This document shows, in pieces, positions 29,278 through 51,952 of a stretch of DNA of 64,000 nucleotides; position 1 is the stretch's first letter, and every line of letters starts with the position of its first letter. The notes beneath the pieces were generated by a model, which was given only the letters and a program-made list of their open reading frames with translations, was not told the origin of the DNA and did no database searches. Where the stretch lies: positions 7,914,976 through 7,978,975 of the forward strand of contig NC_134527.1 of NCBI RefSeq assembly GCF_027942865.1. Reading direction: 5' to 3'. Source of the stretch: Odontesthes bonariensis (Eukaryota; Chordata; Actinopteri; Atheriniformes; Atherinopsidae). Position numbers and translations under genes: made by a program.

Positions 29278-29377
29278 TTCAGATAAATGCAGCTGTCTGG
29301 CCTTGCACAGCTCATTGTTATAACTACGCAGGTTTTCTTTATATAGCTCATAGTGAATCTGAAGCTTTGTTTTCCTC

Positions 29378-30364
29378 CTATTTACGTTCAGCTTTCCTGC
29401 ATTCTCTTTTCAGATTTTTGACCGTAGTGGTGTTTCTCCATGGGGTTTTCTGTTTGATCAAGGTGCTCTTGAGTCTTATCGGTGCAACAGCTTCCATTAC
29501 ATTAAAAATTTTCAAGTTAAAATGATCCAGCATTCCTTCAACCGACTCTGCGCTCATTGTTGGTAACATAACTATGGCCTCCCTTAACTGAGCACTTGTT
29601 TTCTCATTGATAAACCTCTTCTTAACTGAGAAGCTGGTTGTTTGAACATTCTGAGTAATATGTAAATCAAATAAAATACAAAAATGGTCAGACAAGGCCA
29701 AATCAGTAACAACAACAGAAGAAATATCAACACCTTTAGAAATGACCAGGTCCAGAATGTGACCTCGAAAGTGGGTAGGTTCTGTTACATGCTGCCACAA
29801 ACCAAACATGTCCAGCACAGAAGAAAATTCTTTGGCAGTACCATCCGTCATATTATCCATGTGAATGTTAAAATCCCCGGTCAAGATAAAATGGTTAAAA
29901 TCAGTCGAAATAACAGACAATAATTCAGAAAAATCATCAATAAAACTTGCACAGTATCCTGGAGATCTGTAAATGATTAAGAACAGGATTTTAGGAACAC
30001 CCTTTAAAATAAAACTCAGATATTCAAAAGAAGTGAAATCACCAAATGATATCTCTTTACACTGGAATGTATCTTTAAAGAAGGCAGCCTCCCCCCCACC
30101 TTTCCTCCCATTTCGGCATTTATCCATAAAACTAAAGTTTGGGGGAGCTGCTTCATTAAGAACAGTAGCACTTGTGCTCTCTGTTAACCATGTTTCTGTC
30201 AGAAAAAGAAAATCTAAATTGTGTGAAATTATGAAGTCATTAACTAACAGTGACTTATTGGACAGAGATCTAATATTAAGTAAGGCTAGCTTTGTGGAGT
30301 TTACAGTGGTCTCTGTTGTATTCTGAGTTGTACGTGGTGCCGATAACAGATTAGATAAATTCAC
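29378..30364 (-). CDS. LINE ORF2, AP-like endonuclease part
   Basis: 328 codons. Encodes the endonuclease that nicks the target before reverse transcription. Visible motifs in order: LALLNIRSLSNK (N-terminal Asn), FLFLTETWL (catalytic Glu), LFLIIYRSPG, LTGDFNIHMD (GDFN) and ALSDHFCILFD (SDH). All core catalytic residues are present. The frame stops at TAG beside AAATAGGAGG at about 29,378. Shifting by one base continues directly into the reverse transcriptase, so a single inserted base is the only visible break in ORF2. Confidence 0.8.
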   Translation of the reverse strand: MNLSNLLSAPRTTQNTTETTVNSTKLALLNIRSLSNKSLLVNDFIISHNLDFLFLTETWLTESTSATVLNEAAPPNFSFMDKCRNGRKGGGEAAFFKDTFQCKEISFGDFTSFEYLSFILKGVPKILFLIIYRSPGYCASFIDDFSELLSVISTDFNHFILTGDFNIHMDNMTDGTAKEFSSVLDMFGLWQHVTEPTHFRGHILDLVISKGVDISSVVVTDLALSDHFCILFDLHITQNVQTTSFSVKKRFINEKTSAQLREAIVMLPTMSAESVEGMLDHFNLKIFNVMEAVAPIRLKSTLIKQKTPWRNTTTVKNLKRECRKAERK

Positions 30365-30518
30365 CCAGCAGGTTGACTGTTTTCGATTCCTTCTTTTACT
30401 AACTAATACAGGAATCCTATTGGGCCCCAGCTTGTTCTCAGAACAGCTGTCAGAAGTCGGACTTCTATAGCAGGGACCCTGAACACATCATGGCATGGTA
30501 GCTTTGGTTTGAACAGTG

Positions 30519-31181
30519 CTATCTTTGTTTTGAACTCTGGGTGTTGTGCTGCTCCTTGAACATCCTGCACATCCCCTTGTGTCCTGCTCTGCCAGGACAG
30601 ATGATGTAAGAGGAGGAGGAGGGGGTGCCCTGCGTTTCTCGGTTGATGGTGGTCGCTGGAGTCCTGGCTGGGATAGAGACATCCTTTTGAGACCTTGGAT
30701 GATGTGGAGTAAAGGGTCTGGTGAGGGGGGGGGGGGGGGGGGGGGGGCTGGGGGTTGTTTGCCTCGCTGCTGTGTCCTTCAGTCTAATCTGTACAGTCAT
30801 GTTTGGGTTTGCCGTCCCAACAGCATGACGTAAATGTGCACCAAGTAATCTGCATCCAGTTCGATTGGGATGCACGCCATCAGGTCTGAAACGCTCCTTA
30901 CAGTTCCAAAAGATATTAAAGTTATCAATGAACTTAATCCCATGGGCGATGCATGCATTTGACAACCATGTGTTCAGGCCAAGAAGTCTGCTGAAAAGTT
31001 CAATTCCTTTACCCACAGTAGGAATAGGGCCAGAAATGGAGACCCTATGTGCTCCATAGTGACACAGTCTCTCAAACAGCAGAGAAAAATCCTTCTTCAA
31101 GATCTCAGAGCCAGTCTTCCTTCTCAGAATATCAAAAGACCCTGTATGGACAATGATCCTCGTTGCAGTATAATAATTCAT
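30519..31181 (-). CDS. LINE ORF1 fragment with SGNH esterase domain
   Basis: 220 codons. The domain shows IIVHTGSFDIL (block with Gly), VSISGPIPT and a C-terminal RPDGVHPNRTGC with the DxxH pair of SGNH/GDSL hydrolases. Such esterase domains are known in ORF1 of CR1/L2 LINEs and are thought to act on membranes or the RNP. After the domain comes a proline-rich stretch encoded by the G run. The 5' part of ORF1 is lost by truncation at the LINE end, so the first Met need not be the true start. Confidence 0.65.
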   Translation of the reverse strand: MNYYTATRIIVHTGSFDILRRKTGSEILKKDFSLLFERLCHYGAHRVSISGPIPTVGKGIELFSRLLGLNTWLSNACIAHGIKFIDNFNIFWNCKERFRPDGVHPNRTGCRLLGAHLRHAVGTANPNMTVQIRLKDTAARQTTPSPPPPPPPLTRPFTPHHPRSQKDVSIPARTPATTINRETQGTPSSSSYIICPGRAGHKGMCRMFKEQHNTQSSKQR

Positions 31182-32108: not shown

Positions 32109-32930
32109 ATGATGTTAAGGTATGCTCACTCCATGCATCTCTCTGCCTCTTCGTCCTCATCGCTGACCATGTCTCGGGTGCCCTCAAAGCTGCGGAGTTG
32201 TTTCCGCAGGAACAGCGGCGGTGGGAACAAGAAACGTGTGGTGTTTGCAGACGCCATAGGATTGGAACTCACCGCTATACATCTGTTCAACCCTGAGCCG
32301 TCCTCCCCCACATCTGCCCCAGGGATGGGACCCTCTCCAGCCCAACGTCAAGACCAACAGTCAACTTCAAGCAAAATACTGTGCCACAAGATGCAGCTGG
32401 GTCTCCCTCAGTCCACACAAGACTTTAAAACCTTTCTTGCATCTCAGCGGGAGAGGATCGTCCAGCTTGAGAGCTGCAGCATTTCAGAGCACAGCCTAAG
32501 CGGCAAAGTGTGTGTCTCCCACGTTAGCACCAAAAAGGTTGTTCATATAAGGATGACTTTTGACTCTTGGAAGACTCATTATGACATTCCCTGCACGTTC
32601 TTGCAGCATCAGTGGTGCAGTGGTTTAGATGTGGATGTTTTTTCCTTTGACATAAACTTACCCCAGAACATTGATCCAAAAGAGCGATGTGAGTTTTTCG
32701 TCTTATTCAGACCAGGACCTGGCTCTACGTACCACTGGGATGACAACAGGGGGCAGAATTACAGAGTGTGCATGGAAAAAGATGAATCAAGTGCGAGCCA
32801 AGGTAACACTAATCATTGTGACCCCACATTTTCAAAGCAACAACCACTGGCCTGGCCACAAGTGTCTGCTTGTATCCAAAATTCTGGCAATCTCCAGTAT
32901 CTTAACAGGTGGTTGTCCAGCAGAGCATAG
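32109..32930 (+). CDS. N-terminally truncated ppp1r3c duplicate
   Basis: 273 codons in the open frame. From MHLSAS (32,133) on it matches ppp1r3c with about four amino-acid changes (L to S near the start, then K to T, R to W, H to Y in or near the glycogen-binding module) and no frameshift. The PP1-docking KKRVVF motif and the whole CBM21 module are kept. The MSCTR exon and about 60 following residues are missing. In their place are a few codons from the duplicated 3' flank (MMLRYAHS). TTTATTTCAG ending at 32,086 looks like a splice acceptor, but joining it to the ppp1r3c first coding exon gives an early stop, so translation would need an internal Met. AATAAA lies at 33,121-33,126. Functional gene or young pseudogene is undecided. 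Confidence 0.6.
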   Translation: MMLRYAHSMHLSASSSSSLTMSRVPSKLRSCFRRNSGGGNKKRVVFADAIGLELTAIHLFNPEPSSPTSAPGMGPSPAQRQDQQSTSSKILCHKMQLGLPQSTQDFKTFLASQRERIVQLESCSISEHSLSGKVCVSHVSTKKVVHIRMTFDSWKTHYDIPCTFLQHQWCSGLDVDVFSFDINLPQNIDPKERCEFFVLFRPGPGSTYHWDDNRGQNYRVCMEKDESSASQGNTNHCDPTFSKQQPLAWPQVSACIQNSGNLQYLNRWLSSRA

Positions 32931-36473: not shown

Positions 36474-36477
36474 GCAA

Positions 36478-38408
36478 TGTAGCGTTGACACGTTATTAAT
36501 TAATATTTACCTCGAAAATAGTAGGGCACCACCTCTTTTATTTTAATTTGTTACGTTACAGTCCAAAGAGGAAGACTGTTTAAAATCTTGCAATCCTAGT
36601 ATGTTATTTTAAGAATCAGTCTCATTCTGAGTCGTGCGTCCTATTTGGATTGGTAACCGGCTTTAGTAACTGTCTGTGACACTCTTAAGTGGCTTAACAT
36701 AAACATTTATTCAACATTGCACAGGTATATAGGGGTATAAACAATTGATAAAGAGACAGAAATTAGAATTATTGGGGAAACCAAAAAAAAGGGTAATAGG
36801 GAAGAAAGGAGCAGGCCATTAACAGGGTTACCTATCAAAAATGTGACTAAATCTGGTTCATAACACGGATATTGTGCCAACAGTCTTCTGCCCGCGTAGG
36901 TCTGTTCATTCGTCGCTTCCAGAGAAAGTTTTCACTTTATCCACGGTTTCAAAAGATCTCAAACCAGCACCTTACTTTGTCGTAGAGTATCGTGGTTATT
37001 ACAAGGTGAGCGTCAGTCCTTGGAGACCACGTTTCCTTGGTTACCAGCGGCTGGGCGTCGTTGTTGGAGACCACGTTTCCTTGGTTACCAGCGGCTGGGC
37101 GTCGTTGTTGGAGACCACGTTTCCTTGGTGACCGGCTGGGTGACGTTTAGTCGGCTGTTCTTCTTGGGCCGGGCGGTGTGATTTAGCAAACACTCGCGTG
37201 TATCGGACCAGACTTTATAAAAAAAAGGAAGTCTAAAAAAAATGGGAATTAATAGTTACGGAGTAAAATAGAGAGAGGACAGAAGACTTGAGCTAAGAGC
37301 AAGCGATAAGACAAGAGAGAGGTCAAAAATTGTAAGCATAAGCTTAGGGGACAAAGGGAGTGGTCAAGGCTTGGAGGACCACAGGGAGGTCCCAGAGTTG
37401 CGGATTTTGAGAGTAAGCAGTAAGAGCGAGCTAAGAGGGGGAAGATGGTAGATATGAGAGGGAGAATCTCTGGTGCGCTCGGGTTTTAAACTCGAGGTCA
37501 CATGTCAGCTTTCGTCCAATCAGAGTTCAGCTGGCTTTTGACCCAAGGGAAAAAGGGGGGTTGACCATGCTGAATTCATGAGACAAAAAGGGGGGATTCT
37601 GCTCCTTTCTTATACCGTATTTAACCCATATGACAGTGATTTTAGACAATATAGTGTTCTTAACAGACAATAATGTCACATAAAAGCAGGCATAAACACA
37701 AATATGAGCATGAAACACTTATTAGCATACAATACTTCATATTATCATGACAAAAATGGTAATGACAACTTTGCTTGCTGTTAATTTAGAATGATCTGCA
37801 GCTGTTTGAGTAATACCTGTGGAATTAAACCCTATTAGGTTATGCATTGCACATAATGAGAACATTAAACATCCGTAGTTGAAATTGTCCATGGTTGTTT
37901 AGGCTGACATATTGAAAAGTGTCCGTTATCCATGTCCTTTGGGGGGCACTGTGGCTCCACGAGAGGGATCCCTTTTAAATCCAATTTTCATAATTTGCTA
38001 ATTGAAGAAGGTACAAGAATGGCGAATGTTTCAAAATGATCTGTAGGTTTGTCCAGTAATGATTTTCACACTTTCAGTCTACGGAAAGCGAGGTTTATAG
38101 TGGAATTTTCACTCTCTGAAAATAGGGAAGTGTGGCATTCCTTCAGGTTGGACCAGCAGGACATTTGAGGCTACATCTGCTCTCTTATCAGGAGGTGTCC
38201 TACATAATTTATTATTCGTAGCTGGTCTGGGGGAGAGAAGACTCGGAAACAAAGAACCCCATTTAGTTGGTCTCACATCTGGCTCCGTTATCTCCTTTGA
38301 GCTGATCCGTTGAGAGGGTCGTAAAGAGGGTACGTTTCTTGATGTCAAGAAAGGTTGGATCTTTATGTAAACATCTCTGTGCTCTGTCTTTCCTGAGAGC
38401 ACGCTACA
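36478..38408 (-). repeat. 3' LTR of the provirus
   Basis: 1,931 bp, TGTAGCG...CGCTACA. On the minus strand U3 starts at 38,408. A TATAAA (plus-strand TTTATA, 37,214-37,219) suggests transcription starting near 37,190. AATAAA (plus-strand TTTATT, 36,706-36,711) is a candidate polyadenylation signal. U3 is then about 1.2 kb and R-U5 about 0.7 kb. Three 44-bp direct repeats lie at about 37,020-37,131, downstream of the TATA box in the transcribed part. Compared with the 5' LTR, I saw only one base missing from an A run at about 37,219-37,226. Confidence 0.92.
37019..37131. repeat. 44-bp tandem repeats in the 3' LTR
   Basis: TGGAGACCACGTTTCCTTGG recurs at 37,021, 37,065 and 37,109, an exact 44-bp period. 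The third unit is cut short and has GTGACCGGC instead of GTTACCAGCGGC. The same array sits at about 50,559-50,671 in the other LTR. Retroviral LTRs often carry such repeats as enhancers, but here they fall downstream of the proposed TATA box. Confidence 0.85.
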
Positions 38409-38486
38409 TATCCCCCACTTGATTTGGAGGTGTCCTGGGGAGATCTCGGAATCACGGAGGAGTAATCCCAGTGGTCTCAGGTCCAA
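38109..38486 (-). CDS. ORF entering U3 of the 3' LTR, possible accessory gene
   Basis: 125 codons starting 78 bases before the 3' LTR and running into U3, the position that nef- or sag-like genes occupy in some retroviruses. Its LTR-internal part is also open in the 5' LTR (51,649-51,942, 97 codons). It is Pro/Ser/Arg-rich with no signal peptide, no membrane segment and no recognisable domain. It also overlaps the polypurine tract. It may be a chance frame. It is listed because its length and place are suggestive. Confidence 0.25.
   Translation of the reverse strand: MDLRPLGLLLRDSEISPGHLQIKWGICSVLSGKTEHRDVYIKIQPFLTSRNVPSLRPSQRISSKEITEPDVRPTKWGSLFPSLLSPRPATNNKLCRTPPDKRADVASNVLLVQPEGMPHFPIFRE
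38409..38420 (-). other. Polypurine tract
   Basis: On the minus strand AAGTGGGGGATA directly precedes the TGTAGC start of the 3' LTR. A purine-rich run in this place primes plus-strand DNA synthesis in retroviruses. The rest of the interval 38,421-38,743 between env and the LTR has no recognised feature apart from the ORF that overlaps it. Confidence 0.75.
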
Positions 38487-38743
38487 GAGGCTGAGGTGTT
38501 CTCTGAGGTGGTTGTGTTGGCTTTTCCTATCTTGTAGTACTATTTTACTGTAAGACTTATGGAATTAGAAAAACATATAAAAAGATATAACGAATTTAAC
38601 TACGCTTTCTTAAGGGACTATAGTCGTAGCCTGAAACTAATGTCTAACCTATCTTCTAGCTAATTCTTTATAAAAGGGTAAATGGACTAAGTAACAAAGA
38701 AAAATCAAAAAGGGGCAGAGGTGACAGAAAAGTTGGCTTAGAG

Positions 38744-40561
38744 TTATACTTCATTCGCTAGTTCGTGGACTGCGGGGGAATATATGACTCGGGGTTCTTC
38801 CGATTCTGTCTCCTCATCAAAAGTCACTAGATCGGTGGTGTTTTTGTCCTGATCTGGCTTCTTACGTTTGTTACGTCTCGTGGTCCATTTGAGTAGGTTA
38901 ATTTGGCCCTGGAGGGCGTTAGCGCGTCGAGAATATAGGTAAGCGATTCCGAAGGTGAGGAGGTAGCCTAGGGCAACCATAGTCGCGGTTACTGTGTCGG
39001 GGCCTGACCACGAGTAGGATATAGTTGGTCGGGGAGGTTTGTTGCTGGAGGTTATTTCTTTCAGCACGTTCTCTATGGGACTGACGTCAATGGTTTTAAA
39101 ACCTTCAAATTGGAGTTGAGTGACCGTGTCTGCCTCAAGCTCCAGGGATTGCTTTGAGTAGAAATCGGAGATTTCTATTTCCCCGTCGTATTGGTCAGGA
39201 TTAAGGTGGTAAAGGGCCAGGTCTCCTATGTGAAGGATTGCGCCTTCAGGAACTGTGACCCACAATGTGCGGTTTGGTAGTTCCATTTTGGTAGACGTGT
39301 CGTGTTGATCGTAACTAATAGTGGCGGTCTTCGCTGGAGTGTTAACCAACCAGCGACTTCCCACAGTTTCTGCTTGGGTGTTAGTTACTTGGTATTTTGG
39401 TGTGAGAGTTGTTTGGCACTGGGAGTCTTCGGTGAGAAGTTTAAGTCCACAGAGGCCCCCAGTGTCGTCTCTAACGAATGGTTTGCTGGGGCAGAGATAA
39501 TGAATGTCTCTGGTAAGGGTGCACATTTTTAAATTGGGCGCGAGGTAGAGATCTGGAGAACTATCGTGGTACGCTACCACTGTTGGTGTGTGCACTTTAA
39601 CGTGGGTTTCACCTTTCCAGATTCCTACGTTGATGACGTCTTTTAGTCGGTAGATGTTGTCGAGGGTAACTATGGGAAGATTAATGAGGAAGGCTATTTC
39701 GCGGCCTTCGGGATTTACGTGAATGGGGACTGCGCTGCCTAATGTATAAGCTAGATGTGCTTGCAAGGGGTTAACAATTTCTCTAGTGGCCGTGGACAGA
39801 ATGTCCTGTACTACGGCTAGCGACACTAGGTACGGAGGGATTTTTCCCATAGCTAGAGTATCAACGGAGGAGCTAACATCTCTTATCAGATCAGACATGA
39901 GCATAGTTACCAGCTGTGTGTGAGCATAATCAACCTTTAAAACTCCCAGCAGTGTGTCTTCTGCTGCGACTGTCTTCATCAGGGTTTCACTATGGGAGTT
40001 CAAAACCAAGACCGTGCCTTCCACAGTTTTGGTCACCGTGCTGAGCTGTCCTCTCTGCAAGTCTAGTTGCTGTTGGATGCCCGGGATTTCACCCTGCAAC
40101 TCACCCATATGACGCTTTATCGCGGCAATGTTTACGGCATTCACGGCTGACGCCCCCAAACTGAATAGGGAGCCGACGGCGGATGCGGCTGCCAGTAGTC
40201 CCCCAATGAAGCGTTTCTCCCTTCTGTTCGCCCCACTCAGTTCTGATTGAGTGATGGTGAACTTCTGGAGTTGTTGCAACATATGGGTGATGTCTACCTC
40301 CGCATGAGTGATGACTTCTCTCTTCCACCGAGCGCCGGCCCACGAAGTCAGTTTGGCGGAGCTAGGCACGTTCCTCGTGCACAGCACACTAGGACTGAAC
40401 CGGACATACACCTTCTGGGTGTGTAGCCGGCAGTTGGTGATCAGGAGTCCGGGTTGTTCCATTAGAACAATTCCGGAGTCTGGTCCGGGTTCAACGATCT
40501 CAGTCCAAGTGGGAATAGTTGCCAGTCCCATCGTCGCAAGTATGAGCCAGAGTGTCATCAT
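38744..40561 (-). CDS. env: Retroviral envelope glycoprotein, class I fusion (F-like) type
   Basis: 605 codons, unbroken. Residues 1-20 are a signal peptide. A short N-terminal subunit of about 118 residues ends in the furin-type site RREKR. It is followed at once by an alanine/glycine-rich fusion peptide (FIGGLLAAASAVG) and a long heptad-repeat helix (about residues 140-205). A cluster of four cysteines lies in the middle of the large subunit. Near residue 525 is the membrane anchor (TATMVALGYLLTFGIAYLY), then a basic, later acidic cytoplasmic tail of about 70 residues. Orthodox retroviral Envs have a much larger surface subunit. This small-large layout with an N-terminally exposed fusion peptide is that of paramyxovirus-type F proteins. 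TTTTTCACCAG just upstream of the ATG is a candidate env splice acceptor. Confidence 0.85.
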   Translation of the reverse strand: MMTLWLILATMGLATIPTWTEIVEPGPDSGIVLMEQPGLLITNCRLHTQKVYVRFSPSVLCTRNVPSSAKLTSWAGARWKREVITHAEVDITHMLQQLQKFTITQSELSGANRREKRFIGGLLAAASAVGSLFSLGASAVNAVNIAAIKRHMGELQGEIPGIQQQLDLQRGQLSTVTKTVEGTVLVLNSHSETLMKTVAAEDTLLGVLKVDYAHTQLVTMLMSDLIRDVSSSVDTLAMGKIPPYLVSLAVVQDILSTATREIVNPLQAHLAYTLGSAVPIHVNPEGREIAFLINLPIVTLDNIYRLKDVINVGIWKGETHVKVHTPTVVAYHDSSPDLYLAPNLKMCTLTRDIHYLCPSKPFVRDDTGGLCGLKLLTEDSQCQTTLTPKYQVTNTQAETVGSRWLVNTPAKTATISYDQHDTSTKMELPNRTLWVTVPEGAILHIGDLALYHLNPDQYDGEIEISDFYSKQSLELEADTVTQLQFEGFKTIDVSPIENVLKEITSSNKPPRPTISYSWSGPDTVTATMVALGYLLTFGIAYLYSRRANALQGQINLLKWTTRRNKRKKPDQDKNTTDLVTFDEETESEEPRVIYSPAVHELANEV

Positions 40562-40848
40562 CCTGGTGAAAAACAGTGATGGATATTAGGGCTTATTTCA
40601 AATTGATACACTTTTGGTTGGACGGAGGTTAGAGTTGGCTAGTTCACCCCCACTTGCAGTTAGTGTGTTAGTAGCTTTTATTAGACAGGCAGTCGGATCG
40701 GGAAGACGGATTTTAGTTTGAACTATTCTGGTTTTGCCTATTTTGATTTTAGTTCCTTGCTAATAATATTGTTTAGGAGGGAGCTCTGTGTTCTTTTCTT
40801 TTATCGTTTTGTTAAGGCTTTTGCTCCCCCCCCTTGTGGATCTCGGTT
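40562..40848 (-). promoter_or_regulatory. pol-env spacer with candidate env splice acceptor
   Basis: 287 untranslated bases between the gag-pol stop and the env start. On the minus strand a pyrimidine-rich CTGTTTTTCACCAG ends at 40,563, two bases before the first env ATG pair, suiting a subgenomic spliced env mRNA. The matching donor in the leader was not identified. Confidence 0.45.
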
Positions 40849-43800
40849 TTATGGGTTTGCTGAGACCTGATTGTCCTCAGCGGGTCCCCTAAAGCTTTTA
40901 TGTGGTCTAATTTGGTTTCTGTGGACCCATTTGGACTTGGCTTCTTTCTGTCCTTGGCTGATTTTTATCTGATACACCACTGGTGACAGTTTTTCGGTGA
41001 TCAGGTGGGGTCCTGTCCATCGAGGAAGGAACTTTTTGGCCAGCTTTCCAACCTTGTGACTCGTCTGTTCACCGGTTTTGGTGAAGTTGTAGTACCAGAC
41101 CTTGTCCCCCACTTGGAGTTCCTCCTGTGAGGCTTTTTGGTCATAATAGCTCTTTCTTCCCTCGACCGATTTTTCCAGGTGTTTCTGAGCGAATGCAAAG
41201 GTTACCTGTAGGTGTCTGCTGAGGTCCTTCATGTACTGGTGAGTGGTGTACGCTGTTGCTACACTGGCTTCACCTGGTTGGTAGAGCAGATGCAGTGGCA
41301 TTGTCATCTGTCTGCCTGTCATCATTTCAAACGGGGAGATTCCCGTTGCTTCGTGTGGTGTTGCTCTGATGGCCATTAAGACCAACGGTAATTTTACATC
41401 CCAATCTCGTTGGTTGGATGCAACGTACTTCTTGAGTATGTTCACCACAGTTCGGTTGGCTCGCTCTACTTGACCTGAGGCTCGCGGGTGATAACTGATG
41501 TGAAAGTTTGCTTTCACACCCAGAGCTTGCCACAACTGTTGCATGACTTCTGCCGTGAAGTGTGTTCCTCTGTCTGAGTTGACACGACTCGGAAGGCCGA
41601 ATCTTGAGAACACATGGTTCATGAGCAGGTAGGCGGTAGTTTCAGCTGTATCGTTTGCAGCTGGTAGGCATTCTACCCATTTGGTGAATGCACATGTAAC
41701 CGTGAGGAAGTATTTGTTGCCTCTGGTTGATTTGGTGAGAGGTCCCACCCAGTCAATTTGGAGGTCTGACCATGGGAATGAGATGCCTCTCCTCTGCAAC
41801 GGAGCTCGGTGTATCGGGTTTGTCGGCTGAAACTGGCAACACACAAGGCATCCTTTGATGTAGTCGGCTACATCTTTTCTCATTTTTGGCCAGTATGCCA
41901 CTTGTTTTAACGCGCTGTATGTTGCTTTGACACCTTTGTGTCCAGCCGCGGGAAGGTCGTGTGCGTGCACGAGCATCACCCCCCTTTGGTTTCGAGGGAC
42001 CACGAACGCAGGTGAAGAGAGTGCGTCGGAAACATGAACTAAGACACCTTTGACCAACCGCAGGGCTGATCGAGTGGCAAAGAGTTTCCTTAAATCAGGG
42101 ATGTTATTGAGGTCAGACTCAGAGGGTGTGTTTGAGCCGTCAGACACGAACAACACCATTTTATTGATGGCAGGGTCGAGCGATTGAAGGGTGACCAGAT
42201 CAGTGTCGGTGAACGCTGGTTCCACTGACACTGATCCATCGTTAGATGTCTGGGCGGGAGGGTTCGTTTTGGAACGCGTCACCACACAGACCTGTGGTTC
42301 GGAGGAGTCCGCGGTGGCTGCGGTTAGCCACGAGGGATCCAGTGACCAGGGGATGCCATGCATCGCTCCCTGTTTTGCCAAGGAATCAGTTAGGTCGTTC
42401 AGTTCTTTGTCTTGCCCCGGTACACGTGAGTGGCCTCTGACCTTTTTCCAGTAGATCTGCATGTTGTTGGACTCAATGGCGTGGTTACATGCCAGGAACA
42501 ATTCTTTATTTTTCACAGGTTTTCTGCTGGAAGTCAGGAAACCATTGCGTTTCCACGTGGCAAGGTGGCAAGAGAAACTGAGACGAGCGTAGTTTGAATC
42601 AGTACAAATCAATAAGTCTTTCACACCTTTTTCTGCAGCGAGTTGTACCGTGATCAGGACACCTGCCACTTCTGCGTATTGGGACGACTGTGAACCAAGC
42701 TGGAAGCTTTGAGGTTCATAGGGGTTGTTCTGGAGCCAAACGACGCCTGCACCTGCTCGTGTAACCGTGTCATGATGAAAAGAGCACCCATCTACATACG
42801 CAGTAGTCATGTTTTTACACACGTTTTCATCGTAGTAGTGATGGTGGGGGTTGGTTACAGGTGAGGGTTTATCTGTAATTGCGCAGAGTGGAGGTGTATC
42901 TGCAGTGCAGTTCTGACATGCAGCAAGATCGGTGCCGAGAGGGCTCTTTTTGTTCTGCGCGTAGCGGACTTCTAAGTCGAAACTTTGCAGAGCCATTAGC
43001 CATGAGGCCACACGGGCATTTGTTACAACTCCATCCCTTATACGTTGGCTGTTAAGGAACGTGGTAGGTTGGTGTTGTGTTTCTACAATGACCTTTTGGC
43101 CTCCAAGGTAGTTGGAGAAATGTTTAACTGCCCAAACTGTGGCAAGCAGAGCTTTTTCACAGTCAGAATATTTCAGCTCGGGTATAGCTAGCGTTTTACT
43201 GGCGTACGCCACTACTCTCTTATCCTGGTCGTATTTCTGATACAGACCAGCGCTTAAACAGTGAGTTGAGAAGCCCACTTCGAGGTGGAATGGTTTGTCG
43301 CAGTTAGGGTAGTTTAAACATGGTGCTGTGCACAGTTTTTCTTTTAAGGTGGACATGGCCTTTTGTTGTGGCTCAGCCCAGATAAAAGGTGTGTCCTTTT
43401 TAAGTAGTTCAGTTAGAGGTTTTGCTATGTCGGCATAGCTCTCAATGAACTGTCGAGAGTAGTTGCAGACTCCTAAGAAGCTGCGGAGCTCAGAGACGTT
43501 TGAGGGAACTTTGATGTTACTGATGCCCTGGATGCGGTTAACTTGTGGCTCGACACCACTTGGTCCTACTAGGAGACCGACGTAGTCTACTTTGGTTTTG
43601 CACCACTGACATTTTGAGAGTGATATTTTTGCACCCGCAGTGGTGAGTTGACCCAGGACATGGTCGATTTCCTGAATGTGTGCATCCAGGTTGGGGCTAC
43701 GGAGAAGGATGTCATCGACGTAGATGAGGTTACCTCGTTCGCCGGCATCAGGACATGCTTTGTTCAGAAATATGTTGAATTCAGCAGGTGAGTTGGCGTA

Positions 43801-46800
43801 GCCAAAAGGACACCTGGTGAATGTATATTGACGGTTAGCGAACGTGAATGCCAACTTGTGTTGGTCCTCAGCGTGTACTGGAATGGTCCAGAAACCCGAC
43901 GCCACGTCTAGAGTGGAGAAGTATTTGGCATTTTTAACGCGAGGAAGTTCTTGTTCAAGCTGAGTCATTGGCCATCTCGAGAGAGGGACCTGTTGGTTGA
44001 GTTTTCGATAGTCGATCGTGAGTCTCCATTTTCCATTGGGTTTCACGACCGGCCAGAGCGGTGCCGAGTAAGTGCTGTTACAAGGCCGAATGATCCCGTT
44101 TTTCAACAGGTCGTCTATTATTTCTTGTATAGGCTCCTGTGATGCTAGAGGAATCTTATACTGACGTACAAAAGTTGGCGGTGCGTCTGGTGGAGTAGGA
44201 ATGCGCATTGAGTGGATTGTGGTTAACCCACAATCCGAAGAATCAAGTGAGAAAAAATCCTGATATTTGAGAAGGGTTTGGCGTAGCTTGTCGCGTTCCT
44301 CGTCATTAACGAGAGCGTTAGCTTGCGTTACCACTTCTTCGATTCGATCAGCAACATTAGGGGATGGCCCTGTTGTTACTTTTTCCTGTGCGTCGGGAGA
44401 ATCTGGGGTTGATGTAACCGCCAAGACGTCAACCGTGTGAAGTGTCATTTGTTCATCATGACTAAGATCAATGCGACTGACTGAGTTCTGGTCGAGAGTC
44501 ACGACCGAAAAGAGTGCGATCGCCCTTGAAGGCTTTGTGTAGACAACGTGGGTTGTCTGATGTTTTGGGAAGAGTGGAGTTGGGATTTGTCCCAGTATTG
44601 GGATGCCCAGCTCAAAGTCATGGAAGTCGGTACTGATAAGCCAGCCCAGTGGCGTGCCTTTTGGGATCAGTATGGCTTCCTCGCCGATGTTGTTGATCAG
44701 CAAGAATGTGGTCCTAGAATTTAGGCCCAAAAGAGGAGTTGCTTCCAGGGACAGTCCAAGTTCGAAGAACAGTGGCGAAGGTTGAAACAGAGCTTGTGAG
44801 TGGTTAAGACTCTGGCCTGGTTGCATGCATATCCGGAGAGGGACATTCGCCGTGCGTGCTGGTATTGTGGCATGTTGGAAGTTAGCTACTTGGCATACCT
44901 CTGGAATTGTCTGTCCTGACTTCAGGTTGTCTGCGTCAGGCAGATAAGAAGAATCACGCACGGTTGTTAGTGACCACAGAATGTTATTTACTGTGTCAAT
45001 TTGGACTCCTAGTCTCACCAGTATATCGCCTCCTACGTACACTGAGTGTGGAAGGTCGGGAATAACCAGAAAAGTGTGAATCAACATTCTGTTATTCCAC
45101 TTTAATGTGAGAGCACAAACACCCATGGCAGTGAGTGTTGTGGTTGGTGTAGGATCTAATGGGAAACGGAAGGTCTTCTTCACCATCCGGAGATTGGCGT
45201 TTTCTCGTGCCAGTGACTCATATAGATCTTTACTGATTGCGGATTTATCAGCCCATAAAGCTATAATCACATCATCTATCTGCGACTTTTGCAGTTCAAG
45301 ACCTCCGAGCACCTGTGGACAGTACTCGTCCTGCGTGGCTGACGGTTGTAATGCACACAGGAAAGTGTCTCGCTGTGTCGCGAGCTGCGTCACCAGGTTG
45401 TCAGGGTCGGCCTGAGCGGCTGGACTGCTGTGGACAACCTCATCGTGTGTTACGGTTTCGGACGGCTCGAGTGAAGTTATCTGTTGGACAGAGTTATGTT
45501 TTTCACTTTCAAGGACATAGCAGCTAAAATCTTCATTGTACGGAAAAGTAATCGTCAGAGGTTCTCGCACTTGTGCCCACACTTTCAATCGTTTGAAATC
45601 GAGTAAAGGCTCGAAACGGTTCAGAAGATCTTTTCCGACAAGCAAAGGAATGGACTCAAGCGATGACACATACACGGGATGAATCAGAGTCATTGGTCCG
45701 ATTGACAGTTGTATCAGAGATACTGCTGACAGCGTAGTGTTATTAGAGGCGTACGGGCGCACCTCCAGAGAGCAAGGTTGGAGTTTTAACTCTTTATTGC
45801 CGTGGTTTGCTGCCTTACGAAGTCTGTTAAAAAGAGATAGAGACATTAAAGTTATATCCGCGGCAGTGTCGAGGAGAGCTTCATGTCTCAGCACATCTTC
45901 CAAGGTTAGTGAGATGTAAAACTTGCGTGCGACTCCCTTTTCAGAGAGGTTGCAAAGAAATTGGTGTACAGGTGGTTCAACTTGTATCAGAGAGGCATCC
46001 TGGTCAGAGGAGATCTCTTTTTGATCCAGCTGTACAACCAAGACTGCGCTAGGTGGGAGAGGATCTTTTGCCTCTTCTTCTGTGCTGTTCACAGGAGTTT
46101 GTGACTCTGTTTGAGCCTGTTGTGGGTCCAGCTCAGATTCTGGAGTTGGCTCGGCTACTCGTTCTGGCTGTGAAAGGGAATCAGCTGGCAGGGCCAGGTT
46201 CTGTGTCACAGTGGTTATAGACAGAAGATCAGACTTTTTGTTAACTTTCTTTTCTTTCATTTCTTGCAACAAACGTTTAATATTGTCTATCTCATCCTGG
46301 CTGAGACCAAAGGCTTCTTTTTCCTTTTCAGATCTCATGCCTGGAGAGTCTTTGTTGCTCCTTTTGTGTGAATCATTCGATTCCTGTTGGGATAATTTGG
46401 ACCATTCCGTGCGTGGATGTGTGTCCCGAGGCCTATTTTTATAGTCACCCTGATTCTCCCGAGCTGGGTATTTGGGAAACCGGTTTGGGAAGAACTTTCC
46501 TCTGTGAGGGTTAAAAGGAGGTTCGTTGTGTTCTGCACGTGAGTAAGATCGCTCTTTACTGGGCCAGTGAGGTTTCGAGTAACCGTCTCTCGGATGAGAC
46601 GGTTGAGTCTGTGATGTCTTGTGACTCTCACTAGACCGTTGTGGTCGGGTGTCGTGACCAGGTGCCTTACCCCTTTGGGCTCCTTCGAGCTCCATAGGTG
46701 GGTGTTCGGCGTTCAGCGTCAGAACAGTGTTATGCTCTGGCTGTTTAGCTTGTCTGTGTTTCTGGAAACCTAAAGTGGCCCACTCACGGAGCTGCACAAT

Positions 46801-48237
46801 TGTGGCTGTTCGCGGATTAGCCATAACCCCCAAGTGGTGACTAGTAACGGGATGGAGATTTTGGATGAAGAGCGTTTTGAAATTTATATCTTCCTCCATT
46901 CCCTTGTCGTTGCGTGAGCCAAAATAAGCTTTGAGGAGACGGTAATAGTACTGCTGAGGCAGCTCACTACGTCCCTGTTTAACCATCATGGCGGTACTTA
47001 GACCAGACTGAGACAGCTCATCTGAAAATTCCCTCTCCATCGTTTGACAGAGAAGTGCATAATCATTTTGGATGTAATCAAGCTGACGTTCGATGAATCT
47101 ACTTACTTCACGGCTGGACGTGATTTTAATCAAGTAGATTTTGTCCGTAATGGATGCGTTTGGAAATCGACGCAAATAGAAGTCAATATCATTTAAGTAA
47201 GCTCGGGTGTCGTGCGGCCCCCCAGGAGTGGGTTCGAACCTTGGCACGTTGCGAGCGATTTTGTCTAATTCTCGGTCAGAAGGTCCCAACGGTGTGTGGT
47301 TTCCCAGAGCAAGGACCGACTGATCCAGTCTGGTTGGTTCTGGGGACTCACCGTGGGCTCTGAAAGGATTTGGGGTAGCTGGCCCTGTTGGGGGAAAGAA
47401 CGACTCCCCCTGGGCTCCCTTATAGCTAAAACGGCCTTCCTTTTCTGGTTGAGAGGTATCATGCATTTTCAGTTTGCGTTCAGCCTCCAAGGACTGACGT
47501 AAATCTCTTTTTGCATTTATCAACTCTCCTGTTAGGCGTTCGTTTTGCTGATACGCTTCATTGATTTTGTCTTTAGCTTCGCCGAGGTGTTCCTGCAAAA
47601 GCTGTATCTGTTTTTGTTTAGCACTGAGATGCGTCTCATAGGATGCGACTTCAGTGTTCAAATCCTGCACTGTCTGCAGGGCATCGTGGAGAGGTTGTTG
47701 CGAGTCCTTATGGGCTTTATCAACCTCTTCCAGTTTAGCTTGGTTAGCCAGCAACTCTTGTTGGCACTGCTGGAGCGATTCCCCAAGCTCCCCGTTTATC
47801 CCTTTTAGTTGATTCATATCTCTGTCTGATTGTTCAACCTGGGTTGTTAATTTCTCTATTTGGTCAGCAGCCTGGCTTGCTGTCCTTTCAGAGACTTCTA
47901 ATTTATGTTGGAGGAATTTCTTTTCCTCCTGTAATTGCGTTATCGTTTGCGACCGAGTTTTGAGTTTTTCAGCGGCTTGCTCCACCACCTTATGTGCATG
48001 TTTGAATCGCGCGGAGAAGACGACAGCTAAGCTCCCCAATAACTTTGTTAAAGTTTTGTCTTTGGGCGTCTTCGCTTCCACTCCTGCAATAAGTTCTGAC
48101 ACTATTGCCCCGAGCTCGTTGGGGTCAGTGCCTGTTATTTTGTTGACATAACCTGGAATTAGCTCTTCAGTCAAATCCATCAGGGTGTTTTCCATTGCTT
48201 CGAATGGATCGTCCTGACTGGACGTGTCAGAAGTCAT
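40849..48237 (-). CDS. gag-pol: Retroviral Gag-Pol polyprotein in a single frame
   Basis: 2,462 codons with no stop or frameshift between gag and pol. Gag: long coiled coil at about residues 75-265, a capsid-like helical region at about 330-510, then a basic Arg/His/Ser-rich tail without Cys-His zinc knuckles. Protease: LLDTAADIT at about 787 and LLVGKDLLNRF. A second retropepsin-like unit at about 985-1075 (VGGDILVRLG) lacks the catalytic Asp. A beta-rich linker at about 1115-1230 follows. Reverse transcriptase at about 1357-1620, with YVDD near 1505. Degenerate RNase H (tether) at about 1645-1760. Second RNase H at about 1808-1935 with D, E, D, D (AYVDG, YAEV, CTDS, LTDSLAK). Integrase: HHCC finger at about 2090-2130, D near 2160, D near 2222 and E 36 residues later, then a GPY/F-like WTGPHLI near 2405. 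Confidence 0.9.
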   Translation of the reverse strand: MTSDTSSQDDPFEAMENTLMDLTEELIPGYVNKITGTDPNELGAIVSELIAGVEAKTPKDKTLTKLLGSLAVVFSARFKHAHKVVEQAAEKLKTRSQTITQLQEEKKFLQHKLEVSERTASQAADQIEKLTTQVEQSDRDMNQLKGINGELGESLQQCQQELLANQAKLEEVDKAHKDSQQPLHDALQTVQDLNTEVASYETHLSAKQKQIQLLQEHLGEAKDKINEAYQQNERLTGELINAKRDLRQSLEAERKLKMHDTSQPEKEGRFSYKGAQGESFFPPTGPATPNPFRAHGESPEPTRLDQSVLALGNHTPLGPSDRELDKIARNVPRFEPTPGGPHDTRAYLNDIDFYLRRFPNASITDKIYLIKITSSREVSRFIERQLDYIQNDYALLCQTMEREFSDELSQSGLSTAMMVKQGRSELPQQYYYRLLKAYFGSRNDKGMEEDINFKTLFIQNLHPVTSHHLGVMANPRTATIVQLREWATLGFQKHRQAKQPEHNTVLTLNAEHPPMELEGAQRGKAPGHDTRPQRSSESHKTSQTQPSHPRDGYSKPHWPSKERSYSRAEHNEPPFNPHRGKFFPNRFPKYPARENQGDYKNRPRDTHPRTEWSKLSQQESNDSHKRSNKDSPGMRSEKEKEAFGLSQDEIDNIKRLLQEMKEKKVNKKSDLLSITTVTQNLALPADSLSQPERVAEPTPESELDPQQAQTESQTPVNSTEEEAKDPLPPSAVLVVQLDQKEISSDQDASLIQVEPPVHQFLCNLSEKGVARKFYISLTLEDVLRHEALLDTAADITLMSLSLFNRLRKAANHGNKELKLQPCSLEVRPYASNNTTLSAVSLIQLSIGPMTLIHPVYVSSLESIPLLVGKDLLNRFEPLLDFKRLKVWAQVREPLTITFPYNEDFSCYVLESEKHNSVQQITSLEPSETVTHDEVVHSSPAAQADPDNLVTQLATQRDTFLCALQPSATQDEYCPQVLGGLELQKSQIDDVIIALWADKSAISKDLYESLARENANLRMVKKTFRFPLDPTPTTTLTAMGVCALTLKWNNRMLIHTFLVIPDLPHSVYVGGDILVRLGVQIDTVNNILWSLTTVRDSSYLPDADNLKSGQTIPEVCQVANFQHATIPARTANVPLRICMQPGQSLNHSQALFQPSPLFFELGLSLEATPLLGLNSRTTFLLINNIGEEAILIPKGTPLGWLISTDFHDFELGIPILGQIPTPLFPKHQTTHVVYTKPSRAIALFSVVTLDQNSVSRIDLSHDEQMTLHTVDVLAVTSTPDSPDAQEKVTTGPSPNVADRIEEVVTQANALVNDEERDKLRQTLLKYQDFFSLDSSDCGLTTIHSMRIPTPPDAPPTFVRQYKIPLASQEPIQEIIDDLLKNGIIRPCNSTYSAPLWPVVKPNGKWRLTIDYRKLNQQVPLSRWPMTQLEQELPRVKNAKYFSTLDVASGFWTIPVHAEDQHKLAFTFANRQYTFTRCPFGYANSPAEFNIFLNKACPDAGERGNLIYVDDILLRSPNLDAHIQEIDHVLGQLTTAGAKISLSKCQWCKTKVDYVGLLVGPSGVEPQVNRIQGISNIKVPSNVSELRSFLGVCNYSRQFIESYADIAKPLTELLKKDTPFIWAEPQQKAMSTLKEKLCTAPCLNYPNCDKPFHLEVGFSTHCLSAGLYQKYDQDKRVVAYASKTLAIPELKYSDCEKALLATVWAVKHFSNYLGGQKVIVETQHQPTTFLNSQRIRDGVVTNARVASWLMALQSFDLEVRYAQNKKSPLGTDLAACQNCTADTPPLCAITDKPSPVTNPHHHYYDENVCKNMTTAYVDGCSFHHDTVTRAGAGVVWLQNNPYEPQSFQLGSQSSQYAEVAGVLITVQLAAEKGVKDLLICTDSNYARLSFSCHLATWKRNGFLTSSRKPVKNKELFLACNHAIESNNMQIYWKKVRGHSRVPGQDKELNDLTDSLAKQGAMHGIPWSLDPSWLTAATADSSEPQVCVVTRSKTNPPAQTSNDGSVSVEPAFTDTDLVTLQSLDPAINKMVLFVSDGSNTPSESDLNNIPDLRKLFATRSALRLVKGVLVHVSDALSSPAFVVPRNQRGVMLVHAHDLPAAGHKGVKATYSALKQVAYWPKMRKDVADYIKGCLVCCQFQPTNPIHRAPLQRRGISFPWSDLQIDWVGPLTKSTRGNKYFLTVTCAFTKWVECLPAANDTAETTAYLLMNHVFSRFGLPSRVNSDRGTHFTAEVMQQLWQALGVKANFHISYHPRASGQVERANRTVVNILKKYVASNQRDWDVKLPLVLMAIRATPHEATGISPFEMMTGRQMTMPLHLLYQPGEASVATAYTTHQYMKDLSRHLQVTFAFAQKHLEKSVEGRKSYYDQKASQEELQVGDKVWYYNFTKTGEQTSHKVGKLAKKFLPRWTGPHLITEKLSPVVYQIKISQGQKEAKSKWVHRNQIRPHKSFRGPAEDNQVSANP

Positions 48238-48370
48238 GTTGATTTGTCGAGAAAAGTTTTGTTAATCTATTTGTTTAGGCGTAACCGTGGTAAGCAGTTA
48301 GGCAAGTTATAGACTAAGTTTAGCGTGTCTGGAAGAAGGGAAGGAAAGTAAGAAAAAGAAAAGGAAAAAA

Positions 48371-48408
<38 letters not shown>

Positions 48409-49991
48409 TCTTTCAATTTAAAATTAATAAAATAAAAAAAAATAAAATAATTAAAAATTAAAATTAAAATTAATGATCAAAAAAAAAATGTTTTAAAAGT
48501 TTATCGCTTAAAATTATTTAATTCCAAATTGCTTTTGAAATTAAACTTAGAACAAAATTAAATAACAACAAGATGGAAATAATCAAACAAAAGAAAATTC
48601 AGAAAGAAGTATTCCTTAATAAAATTTATCTTACTTGATTAAGCCGAATTATTGATAAGTTCTTTCCTTCTTCCAAGTGTCGTTCCTTTTCTAATGATGT
48701 TAATTTTGGGGTTGCTGATTGGGGTGTCGCAATTTAGGAGTTGTGGATATAATCCACCGTTTTAGGTTGACTCTCTTTTAACCTTAAAAATCAGTTACTG
48801 TTGAGTTTTCTGATTTTAAATTTCCTATTTATTTAAGAATCGTTTTTCTCTTAAACCCTTAAACAAGTTATGCAAACAGTCATTGTTAGTACAGGAATTA
48901 GTTGTGAACCACGTGATTGCTTTTCAATTCAATCACTTCACCACAAGTTACAATGGCGCTGGTCAGATTTGTTAGTCAAACACCATTTCCCAGAATTCCT
49001 TCACTTTGTTGTAATTAACCAAGTTACCAGCAGATGACGCTAAGGCTCGTTCTTGTGTTATGTGCAGCGGGCTTCCAGGGGAAGAGTGAGAAAGTGCTGA
49101 CGTCAGATGTTGACGACTTTGGCACCTCCCACTCAGGAAGTGTCCGTGCTGTGTGGCTCTCAGCCCACAGCAAATTTTTAGCTTAGCAGACTCACGCCAA
49201 GCTTTTAAACAACATTCATGTCACAAGCAAAGAGAAACACGGCGGTTTCTAACACAGCTTTTATCAACAGCTTTGCAGAAGAGGCAGCATTTGCGAGACG
49301 TGGCAGTCTCCAACTTTCCACCTTAAGCTTTTAAGGGCTTCCAACACGTCAGCGCTCCTGCCGACGTGCTGACTCAATTGGGCTCGTGCTTCTACGAACA
49401 CCGAGTTAAAACAGACTTGCCTTTAGGCACTTCAACTCTTCAAAATTGACTATAACTACCCTCTCTTCGGGAAGTGATAATACACACGCCGTATAGACGT
49501 TACTTTCACCGGCCACGGGAGGTTTCGCCTTAGGCCTGTCAAATCTCCTGGCTGTTTGTAAACAAACCAGCTGCTGGCTATGTAGCTACACTAGCTTCAG
49601 CACGGAGTCCTGAGTTCAGCAGATGATCACCGGAATCTCGCGGATAATTATCTCTGTTCCTCAGAGTGGTTATATCAATGTTGGATACTCGCAACCATTA
49701 ATCCCCACTTGGCCAGATATTATTGAGCGTTTTTTTAACACGCTCTTGCATGCAAAATTACTTCAGGAGGAAGCACACTCAGGCAGCGCTGACGTGTTCC
49801 GTTTCTGTGTTTTTGTAATACTTTCTTACTACAAAAACAATTCAAACAACAAGTTTATGCGTCCATAAAGTTTGTTATTCGGCTCTATATCTTTGCTTTC
49901 GTTAACTCTTAACTGCAGGAAACAAACAGTTTGTAGAACAATGCTCACACACACAGGCAGTTTTGCTAAGCGCGGCTACTTCACAAATCGC
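48238..49991 (-). other. Proviral leader (5' untranslated region)
   Basis: Unusually long leader of about 1.75 kb between primer-binding site and gag. On the plus strand it includes a run of 30 A (48,376-48,405) followed by about 150 bp of almost pure A/T. The part near the LTR is of ordinary composition. No long minus-strand frame is present. It should contain the packaging signal and major splice donor, which I could not place. Confidence 0.6.
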
Positions 49992-50009
49992 CTCGCACTG
50001 ACGGCACCA
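49992..50009 (-). other. Primer-binding site, tRNA-His-like
   Basis: Seven bases inside the 5' LTR, the minus strand reads TGGTGCCGT, then CAGTGCGAG. TGG pairs with the CCA end of a tRNA, and the first nine bases agree with the histidine primer site as I remember it. The following nine do not agree well, so the primer may be another fish tRNA. Confidence 0.6.
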
Positions 50010-50016
50010 AAATATA

Positions 50017-51948
50017 TGTAGCGTTGACACGTTATTAATTAATATTTACCTCGAAAATAGTAGGGCACCACCTCTTTTATTTTAATTTGTTACGTTACAG
50101 TCCAAAGAGGAAGACTGTTTAAAATCTTGCAATCCTAGTATGTTATTTTAAGAATCAGTCTCATTCTGAGTCGTGCGTCCTATTTGGATTGGTAACCGGC
50201 TTTAGTAACTGTCTGTGACACTCTTAAGTGGCTTAACATAAACATTTATTCAACATTGCACAGGTATATAGGGGTATAAACAATTGATAAAGAGACAGAA
50301 ATTAGAATTATTGGGGAAACCAAAAAAAAGGGTAATAGGGAAGAAAGGAGCAGGCCATTAACAGGGTTACCTATCAAAAATGTGACTAAATCTGGTTCAT
50401 AACACGGATATTGTGCCAACAGTCTTCTGCCCGCGTAGGTCTGTTCATTCGTCGCTTCCAGAGAAAGTTTTCACTTTATCCACGGTTTCAAAAGATCTCA
50501 AACCAGCACCTTACTTTGTCGTAGAGTATCGTGGTTATTACAAGGTGAGCGTCAGTCCTTGGAGACCACGTTTCCTTGGTTACCAGCGGCTGGGCGTCGT
50601 TGTTGGAGACCACGTTTCCTTGGTTACCAGCGGCTGGGCGTCGTTGTTGGAGACCACGTTTCCTTGGTGACCGGCTGGGTGACGTTTAGTCGGCTGTTCT
50701 TCTTGGGCCGGGCGGTGTGATTTAGCAAACACTCGCGTGTATCGGACCAGACTTTATAAAAAAAAAGGAAGTCTAAAAAAAATGGGAATTAATAGTTACG
50801 GAGTAAAATAGAGAGAGGACAGAAGACTTGAGCTAAGAGCAAGCGATAAGACAAGAGAGAGGTCAAAAATTGTAAGCATAAGCTTAGGGGACAAAGGGAG
50901 TGGTCAAGGCTTGGAGGACCACAGGGAGGTCCCAGAGTTGCGGATTTTGAGAGTAAGCAGTAAGAGCGAGCTAAGAGGGGGAAGATGGTAGATATGAGAG
51001 GGAGAATCTCTGGTGCGCTCGGGTTTTAAACTCGAGGTCACATGTCAGCTTTCGTCCAATCAGAGTTCAGCTGGCTTTTGACCCAAGGGAAAAAGGGGGG
51101 TTGACCATGCTGAATTCATGAGACAAAAAGGGGGGATTCTGCTCCTTTCTTATACCGTATTTAACCCATATGACAGTGATTTTAGACAATATAGTGTTCT
51201 TAACAGACAATAATGTCACATAAAAGCAGGCATAAACACAAATATGAGCATGAAACACTTATTAGCATACAATACTTCATATTATCATGACAAAAATGGT
51301 AATGACAACTTTGCTTGCTGTTAATTTAGAATGATCTGCAGCTGTTTGAGTAATACCTGTGGAATTAAACCCTATTAGGTTATGCATTGCACATAATGAG
51401 AACATTAAACATCCGTAGTTGAAATTGTCCATGGTTGTTTAGGCTGACATATTGAAAAGTGTCCGTTATCCATGTCCTTTGGGGGGCACTGTGGCTCCAC
51501 GAGAGGGATCCCTTTTAAATCCAATTTTCATAATTTGCTAATTGAAGAAGGTACAAGAATGGCGAATGTTTCAAAATGATCTGTAGGTTTGTCCAGTAAT
51601 GATTTTCACACTTTCAGTCTACGGAAAGCGAGGTTTATAGTGGAATTTTCACTCTCTGAAAATAGGGAAGTGTGGCATTCCTTCAGGTTGGACCAGCAGG
51701 ACATTTGAGGCTACATCTGCTCTCTTATCAGGAGGTGTCCTACATAATTTATTATTCGTAGCTGGTCTGGGGGAGAGAAGACTCGGAAACAAAGAACCCC
51801 ATTTAGTTGGTCTCACATCTGGCTCCGTTATCTCCTTTGAGCTGATCCGTTGAGAGGGTCGTAAAGAGGGTACGTTTCTTGATGTCAAGAAAGGTTGGAT
51901 CTTTATGTAAACATCTCTGTGCTCTGTCTTTCCTGAGAGCACGCTACA
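50017..51948 (-). repeat. 5' LTR of the provirus
   Basis: 1,932 bp with the same TG...CA ends as the 3' LTR. The TATA-like motif (plus-strand TTTATA, 50,753-50,758) and the 44-bp repeats are conserved. As the promoter-bearing LTR it drives transcription toward lower coordinates through gag-pol and env. It differs from the other LTR by one extra A in the run following the TATA motif, and by nothing else that I noticed. Confidence 0.92.
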
Positions 51949-51952
51949 GCAA

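What the first reader, a model, noticed from the sequence alone, without database searches (positions are those of the whole stretch)
36478..51948. Apparently intact endogenous retrovirus of lokiretrovirus type
Seen: complete provirus with unbroken gag-pol and env, a tether plus a second RNase H, YVDD reverse transcriptase, a D-D-(35)-E integrase, and an Env laid out like a paramyxovirus-type fusion protein. Known from memory: lokiretroviruses are a vertebrate lineage basal to known retroviruses, with Env related to mononegavirus fusion glycoproteins. Inference: this 15.5-kb element is a full-length, possibly recently active member. Intact examples would be informative about retrovirus origins.
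Basis: partly seen in the sequence, partly recalled or inferred. Interest (0 to 1): 0.88.

Follow-up and report, generated by a model that had tools for sequence, protein, structure and literature searches.

The report
Young intact lokiretrovirus in pejerrey fish
A South American silverside fish carries dozens of nearly identical, apparently intact copies of a lokiretrovirus, a little-known cousin of retroviruses whose surface protein resembles the fusion protein of measles-type viruses, so a group known mainly from genomic copies may have been spreading very recently.

Summary
Tether, second RNase H, YVDD RT and DD35E integrase are confirmed. The RT lies in a fish/lamprey/frog clade apart from Metaviridae and next to foamy virus. 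Env matches F proteins weakly by sequence and clearly by predicted fold. This is the published lokiretrovirus anatomy.

New here: the genome is Odontesthes bonariensis. It holds at least 50 full RT matches at 96-100%, 32 of them in an open frame as long as the window's, and 40 full-length env rows, 37 without a stop. Sixteen LTR pairs show 4 mismatches in 30.7 kb. Protein-changing env variants are depleted (31 seen, 49.1 expected, P 6e-6). Best reading: a very recent burst in which Env was needed, probably germline reinfection. New member of a known kind, unusually young and intact. Whether any copy works was not tested.

The parts
50017..51948 (-). 5' LTR (1932 bp)
36478..38408 (-). 3' LTR (1931 bp), same as 5' LTR but for one indel; both hold 2.6 copies of a 44-bp tandem repeat
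36474..36477 (.). target-site duplication GCAA, left copy
51949..51952 (.). target-site duplication GCAA, right copy
49992..50009 (-). candidate primer binding site starting TGGTGCCG, 7 nt inside the 5' LTR end; tRNA not identified
   Evidence: sequence read; assignment is inference
48238..50016 (-). non-coding leader, depleted in ATG on the element strand (8 against 23.8 in shuffles)
   Evidence: computed on 48238-50015
40849..48237 (-). single gag-pol ORF, 2462 aa
47473..48015 (-). Gag coiled-coil region, about aa 75-255 (limits by eye)
   Evidence: sub-threshold coiled-coil type hits; sequence
46747..47277 (-). Gag capsid domain, about aa 321-497
46318..46680 (-). basic nucleocapsid-like region without CCHC knuckle (limits by eye)
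45634..45909 (-). protease, aa 777-868, triplet DTA
43573..44043 (-). reverse transcriptase core as matched by RVT_1, YVDD at aa 1506-1509
42979..43380 (-). tether (degenerate first RNase H)
42364..42810 (-). second RNase H with its four acids
41824..42000 (-). integrase zinc finger
41464..41763 (-). integrase core, D-D-(35)-E
40909..41109 (-). integrase C-terminal SH3-like domain
   Evidence: weak, sub-threshold hits
38744..40561 (-). env, 605 aa, F-type class I fusion glycoprotein; furin-type site at aa 114-117, one C-terminal membrane helix
38409..38425 (-). polypurine tract next to the 3' LTR (limits by eye)

Best explanation
This is a full-length, very recently inserted provirus of the lokiretrovirus kind in the genome of the silverside Odontesthes bonariensis, one of at least 50 near-identical RT-bearing copies. 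Shown: the anatomy; an RT apart from Metaviridae; the F-like predicted fold of Env; near-zero LTR divergence in 16 copies; mostly open frames across copies; and depletion of protein-changing variants in env and pol among copies. Inferred: an LTR-driven full-length RNA is translated into one Gag-Pol precursor and a spliced RNA into Env; a coiled-coil Gag builds the particle; furin-type cleavage before the fusion peptide primes Env, which must do both attachment and fusion because no second glycoprotein gene is present; RT with tether and RNase H makes the cDNA and the integrase inserts it with a 4-bp duplication. The burst spread mainly by Env-dependent (re)infection of germ-line cells rather than by Env-less copying inside cells; I give this last step about 0.65 on its own.
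Against: Env hits Fusion_gly only below the curated cut-off and a 33-sequence Env profile found no F chain in the PDB. The Env model is moderate (pLDDT 69, pTM 0.50) and its F matches have low TM-scores and large rmsd. No labelled lokiretrovirus or Odin sequence was in the tree; the tree carries long-branch and unsettled-bootstrap warnings, and one frog row (P0143) that I had labelled with this clade fell with foamy virus. The protease match is weak and its triplet is DTA. The primer tRNA is not identified. 18 of 50 RT rows lie in shorter open frames, 3 of 40 full-length env rows hold a stop. Including two more divergent env copies the shared variants are 7 protein-changing and 15 silent, a weaker contrast. 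Private RT variants are only mildly depleted (32 against 39.0, P 0.024). LTR pairs were drawn from the 40 scored of 577 candidates, hence biased towards copies like the window.
Confidence: 0.8

Rival explanations
1. Same element, but the burst came from intracellular retrotransposition of one or a few master copies, with env carried along as a passenger.
For: Many near-identical copies and a short time span suit a master-copy burst; PMC4643047 (passages) describes retrovirus families that switched to retrotransposition.
Against: Protein-changing env variants are depleted (31 against 49.1, P 6e-6), 37 of 40 full-length env rows lack a stop, and copies form 36 nucleotide haplotypes among 37.
Confidence: 0.27
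2. A Ty3/gypsy element (Metaviridae, errantivirus type) that captured a baculovirus-like F as Env.
For: Baculovirus F proteins are at ranks 7-9 and 11 of the BFVD fold list; Metaviridae with F-type Env exist (PMC12583693, passages).
Against: RT separated from 38 gypsy rows at 100/99; a second, intact RNase H and a degenerate first one, unlike 38 of 39 gypsy rows.
Confidence: 0.03
3. A foamy-type or other canonical endogenous retrovirus.
For: Best solved RT is foamy (6.7e-42); coiled-coil Gag without zinc knuckle; foamy Env among weak fold matches (2e-5).
Against: The RT is outside the foamy pair, in a separate 67-row clade at 99/94; Env fold matches to F are much stronger.
Confidence: 0.05
4. 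Assembly artefact: few real copies duplicated in the assembly.
For: Copies are very similar.
Against: 16 of 16 LTR pairs lie at different sites, each with its own matching 4-bp duplication; 36 env haplotypes among 37 copies.
Confidence: 0.02

Closest known systems
Lokiretroviruses (as described in PMC9040795, parts 1-2 of 4 read; the original paper is not held)
   Same: Vertebrate host, tether plus second RNase H, F-like Env, RT clade near canonical retroviruses
   Different: Here with dozens of near-identical copies, near-zero LTR divergence and measured constraint on env; I cannot say how young or intact the published ones are, since their tables were not seen
Zebrafish BHIKHARI Bik-1 and Bik-2 (PMC10996621, passages)
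   Same: Recently active lokiretrovirus relatives; Gag with N-terminal coiled coil and capsid domain
   Different: Bik-1 and Bik-2 encode gag but no pol or env; this family encodes all three
Odin retrotransposons of sea anemones (PMC9040795)
   Same: Dual RNase H; reported as sister to lokiretroviruses
   Different: No env reported; none of their sequences compared here
Foamy viruses
   Same: Closest solved RT; the coiled-coil start of the related Bik-1 Gag is called foamy-like in PMC10996621; foamy Env reported as F-linked (reference title in PMC12583693)
   Different: RT outside the foamy pair; Env fold match to foamy Env is weak; no foamy Gag was compared here
Fusion proteins of paramyxoviruses, pneumoviruses and invertebrate negative-strand viruses
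   Same: Predicted fold of Env; best BFVD match is a glycoprotein of Sanxia water strider virus 4 (7.4e-21); furin-type site followed by a fusion-peptide-like stretch
   Different: Borne by an integrating element; no partner attachment protein is encoded in it

Membership tests
Lokiretroviruses | LTR provirus with gag, pol and env in a vertebrate | tested here: met
Lokiretroviruses | Dual RNase H with a degenerate first copy (tether) | tested here: met
Lokiretroviruses | Env similar to fusion glycoproteins of Mononegavirales | tested here: met
   Searches (sub-threshold; 25 of 33 at E up to 0.01), by fold; a profile-to-PDB sequence search found none
Lokiretroviruses | RT outside Metaviridae and beside canonical retroviruses | tested here: met
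   with foamy virus as the only canonical reference
Lokiretroviruses | RT groups with named lokiretroviruses and Odin | not tested
   no labelled sequences to hand; the host range of the clade (fish, lamprey P0114, frog P0120) agrees with the published one
Odin retrotransposons | No env gene | tested here: not met
   env present
Metaviridae | RT inside the gypsy clade | tested here: not met
   38 gypsy rows separated at 100/99
Metaviridae | Single active RNase H | tested here: not met
Spumaretrovirinae | RT inside the foamy clade | tested here: not met
   two foamy RT fragments form their own pair outside the window's clade
Orthoretrovirinae | RT inside one of its genera | tested here: inconclusive
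   no orthoretroviral RT in the tree; pairwise scores to MLV and HIV chains are lower than to foamy and Ty3
Canonical retroviral Env | Env matching ordinary retroviral Env | tested here: inconclusive
   no retroviral Env family among the Pfam hits; walleye epsilonretrovirus and feline foamy Env appear at ranks 30 and 43 of the BFVD list

The most novel reading that the evidence does not exclude
Lokiretroviruses are not only fossils: an infectious lokiretrovirus entered the Odontesthes germ line within the last few thousand to some tens of thousands of years and may still circulate, using one F-type protein for both attachment and fusion. With the foamy virus as RT neighbour, a coiled-coil Gag without zinc knuckle, and the F link reported for foamy Env, it further suggests that lokiretroviruses and foamy viruses share an ancestral F-type Env instead of two separate captures.
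Probability: 0.3. Interest if true: 0.85.

Novelty: new member of a known kind. Interest (0 to 1): 0.62.

Why it matters
Lokiretroviruses bear on how retroviruses arose from retrotransposons. A family with dozens of young, largely open copies in a living fish makes two open questions testable: whether lokiretroviruses are still infectious agents, and whether their Env and the foamy Env have one origin. The copies are also a natural sample of variants in which constraint on each gene can be measured.

Tried and rejected
Rejected: the protease triplet DTA as a lesion of this copy, because 10 of the 48 relatives in which the motif was recognised (of 120 scanned) share it. A tRNA gene or a known RNA family in the leader: none found. 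Led nowhere: scanning viral contigs with RT pieces (no confirmed relative); sequence searches of Env against the PDB (only weak unrelated hits); the primer tRNA (pattern search did not complete). The first RT-piece polymorphism attempt kept 4 of 37 copies because the pieces were shifted against each other; it was redone with registration, 35 of 37 kept, L094 and L095 dropped. In the env test L080 and L081 were left out as divergent (29 and 20 differences), leaving 37 of 39; one further full-length env row (C15, 94%, one stop) was not fetched, so 39 of 40 were used. My first choice of the tether's third acid was off by one column and was corrected; the fourth position was uninformative.

Full report
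What is there. The stretch 36478-51948 is a provirus on the minus strand. Its two LTRs align end to end with no mismatch and one indel, begin TGTAGCG and end CGCTACA, and are flanked by GCAA on both sides. One reading frame of 2462 codons runs from 48237 down to 40849, and a second of 605 codons from 40561 to 38744. No other ATG/GTG/TTG frame of more than 125 codons overlaps the element on either strand.

Two RNase H domains. The first matches Ty3-type RNase H models over their full length but has lost catalytic acids. Among homologues aligned by BLAST, the first acid is kept in 1 of 71 fish/lamprey/frog rows against 38 of 39 gypsy rows, and the third in 0 of 69 rows (2 of them gaps) against 38 of 39. 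The second RNase H keeps its four acids in 66/66, 61/64, 61/64 and 57/58 rows. These groups were set by me from the hit list, by rank and named organism.

RT place. A maximum-likelihood tree of 108 RT rows (the window, 105 of the 120 listed homologues with enough RT, two foamy fragments) puts the window in a clade of 67 rows (99/94) that includes fish, a lamprey (P0114) and a frog (P0120). This clade joins the foamy pair plus one frog row (P0143) at 100/99, against 38 gypsy rows at 100/99. I had labelled P0143 with the first group beforehand; it fell with foamy. The tool warned of long branches and an unsettled bootstrap, and the root is a midpoint. By pairwise score the best solved RT is foamy (6.7e-42), then Ty3 (3.5e-31), caulimovirus (by my reading of 'Enzymatic polyprotein', 8r0s) and MLV-type. 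In PMC9040795 (parts 1-2 of 4 read) lokiretroviruses and Odin are together sister to canonical retroviruses; PMC12440569 (passages) supports that join only weakly.

Host and family. The best match to the neighbouring host gene is a PPP1R3C-like protein of Odontesthes bonariensis, 99% identical over 72% of the ORF, on a contig of 33,056,536 bases, the length of the contig that holds the window. In that 945-Mb genome the Env search gave 75 matches, 40 of them full length, 37 of these without a stop. The RT search gave 151 matches; 50 cover the whole piece at 96-100%, 32 of them in an open frame as long as the window's. Only part of the candidates was scored, so these are lower bounds. Below them the listed rows hold some fragments at 74-99%, then nothing above 36%: the family looks like one young wave.

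Age. Of 34 full-length LTR rows (40 of 577 candidates scored, hence biased to copies like the window), 32 form 16 pairs and two are unpaired. All 16 pairs have an exact 4-bp duplication, each at a different site. Ten pairs are identical; in total there are 4 mismatches and 2 indels in 30,738 bp. With assumed (not measured) rates of 2.5e-9 to 1e-8 per site per year the mean age is about 26,000 to 6,500 years, and 95% limits span about 1,800 to 67,000 years over these rates.

How it spread. The 37 core env copies differ by 5.5 nt on average in 1815 (0.0030), over 20 times the divergence of LTRs within copies; about 4 post-insertion env changes are expected over all 37 copies against 61 private variants. 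So most differences arose while the element was replicating. Weighted by the observed mutation types and CpG context, 31 of 74 variants change or stop the protein against 49.1 expected (P 6e-6); among variants shared by two or more copies 2 of 13 against 8.0 (P 6e-4), among private ones 29 of 61 against 41.0 (P 7e-4). For RT-RNase H it is 44 of 105 against 73.5 (P 6e-10), private alone 32 of 55 against 39.0 (P 0.024), in 35 of 37 copies. The test treats variants as independent. Env constraint during amplification is the published argument for reinfection over retrotransposition (PMC4643047, passages). It remains an inference; no virus was seen.

Compared with what is known. The lokiretrovirus features that I could test are met; grouping with named lokiretroviruses was not tested. 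What stands out is youth, number and integrity. Zebrafish Bik-1 and Bik-2 are young relatives but lack pol and env (PMC10996621, passages); their Gag has a coiled coil the authors call foamy-like and a capsid domain. Listings for Odontesthes with retrovirus (2 papers) and with transposable elements (6 of 10 listed), and for lokiretrovirus, showed no title or abstract start that describes this family; the library holds open-licence papers only. A link between foamy Env and F was seen only as passages and reference titles in PMC12583693; whether anyone has joined lokiretroviral and foamy Env in print I could not tell.

Noticed in passing
window 24646-25689 (+) and 32109-32930 (+): Two PPP1R3C-like reading frames are 99% identical over 267 aa, a recent duplication of a glycogen-metabolism regulator gene about 7 kb apart.
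   Followed up: partly
window 27490-31181 (-): A LINE-type element between them: reverse transcriptase, endonuclease and an OSK/GDSL esterase-like frame in three separate ORFs.
   Followed up: no
window 48238-50015 (-): The proviral leader holds 8 ATG against 23.8 in dinucleotide shuffles (0 of 1000 as low), while its other strand holds 17 against 19.6; a U-rich tract lies about 100-260 nt before gag. This suggests ribosome scanning or an intron.
   Followed up: partly
window 49992-50009 (-): Primer binding site candidate lies 7 nt inside the LTR end, and beyond its first 8-9 bases fits no tRNA that I recall.
   Followed up: no
own genome C23, C16, C2, C24 (rows): A second LTR type matches only part of the window's LTR (96% over 1008-1932, 87-96% over 1-509).
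   Followed up: no
loci L009-L041: LTR length varies between copies (1872-1969 bp) but by at most 1 bp within a copy.
   Followed up: no
env pieces L043-L079: Env variants show more C>T (27) than G>A (10) on the coding strand, while the RT-RNase H pieces do not (20 and 23); cause unknown.
   Followed up: no
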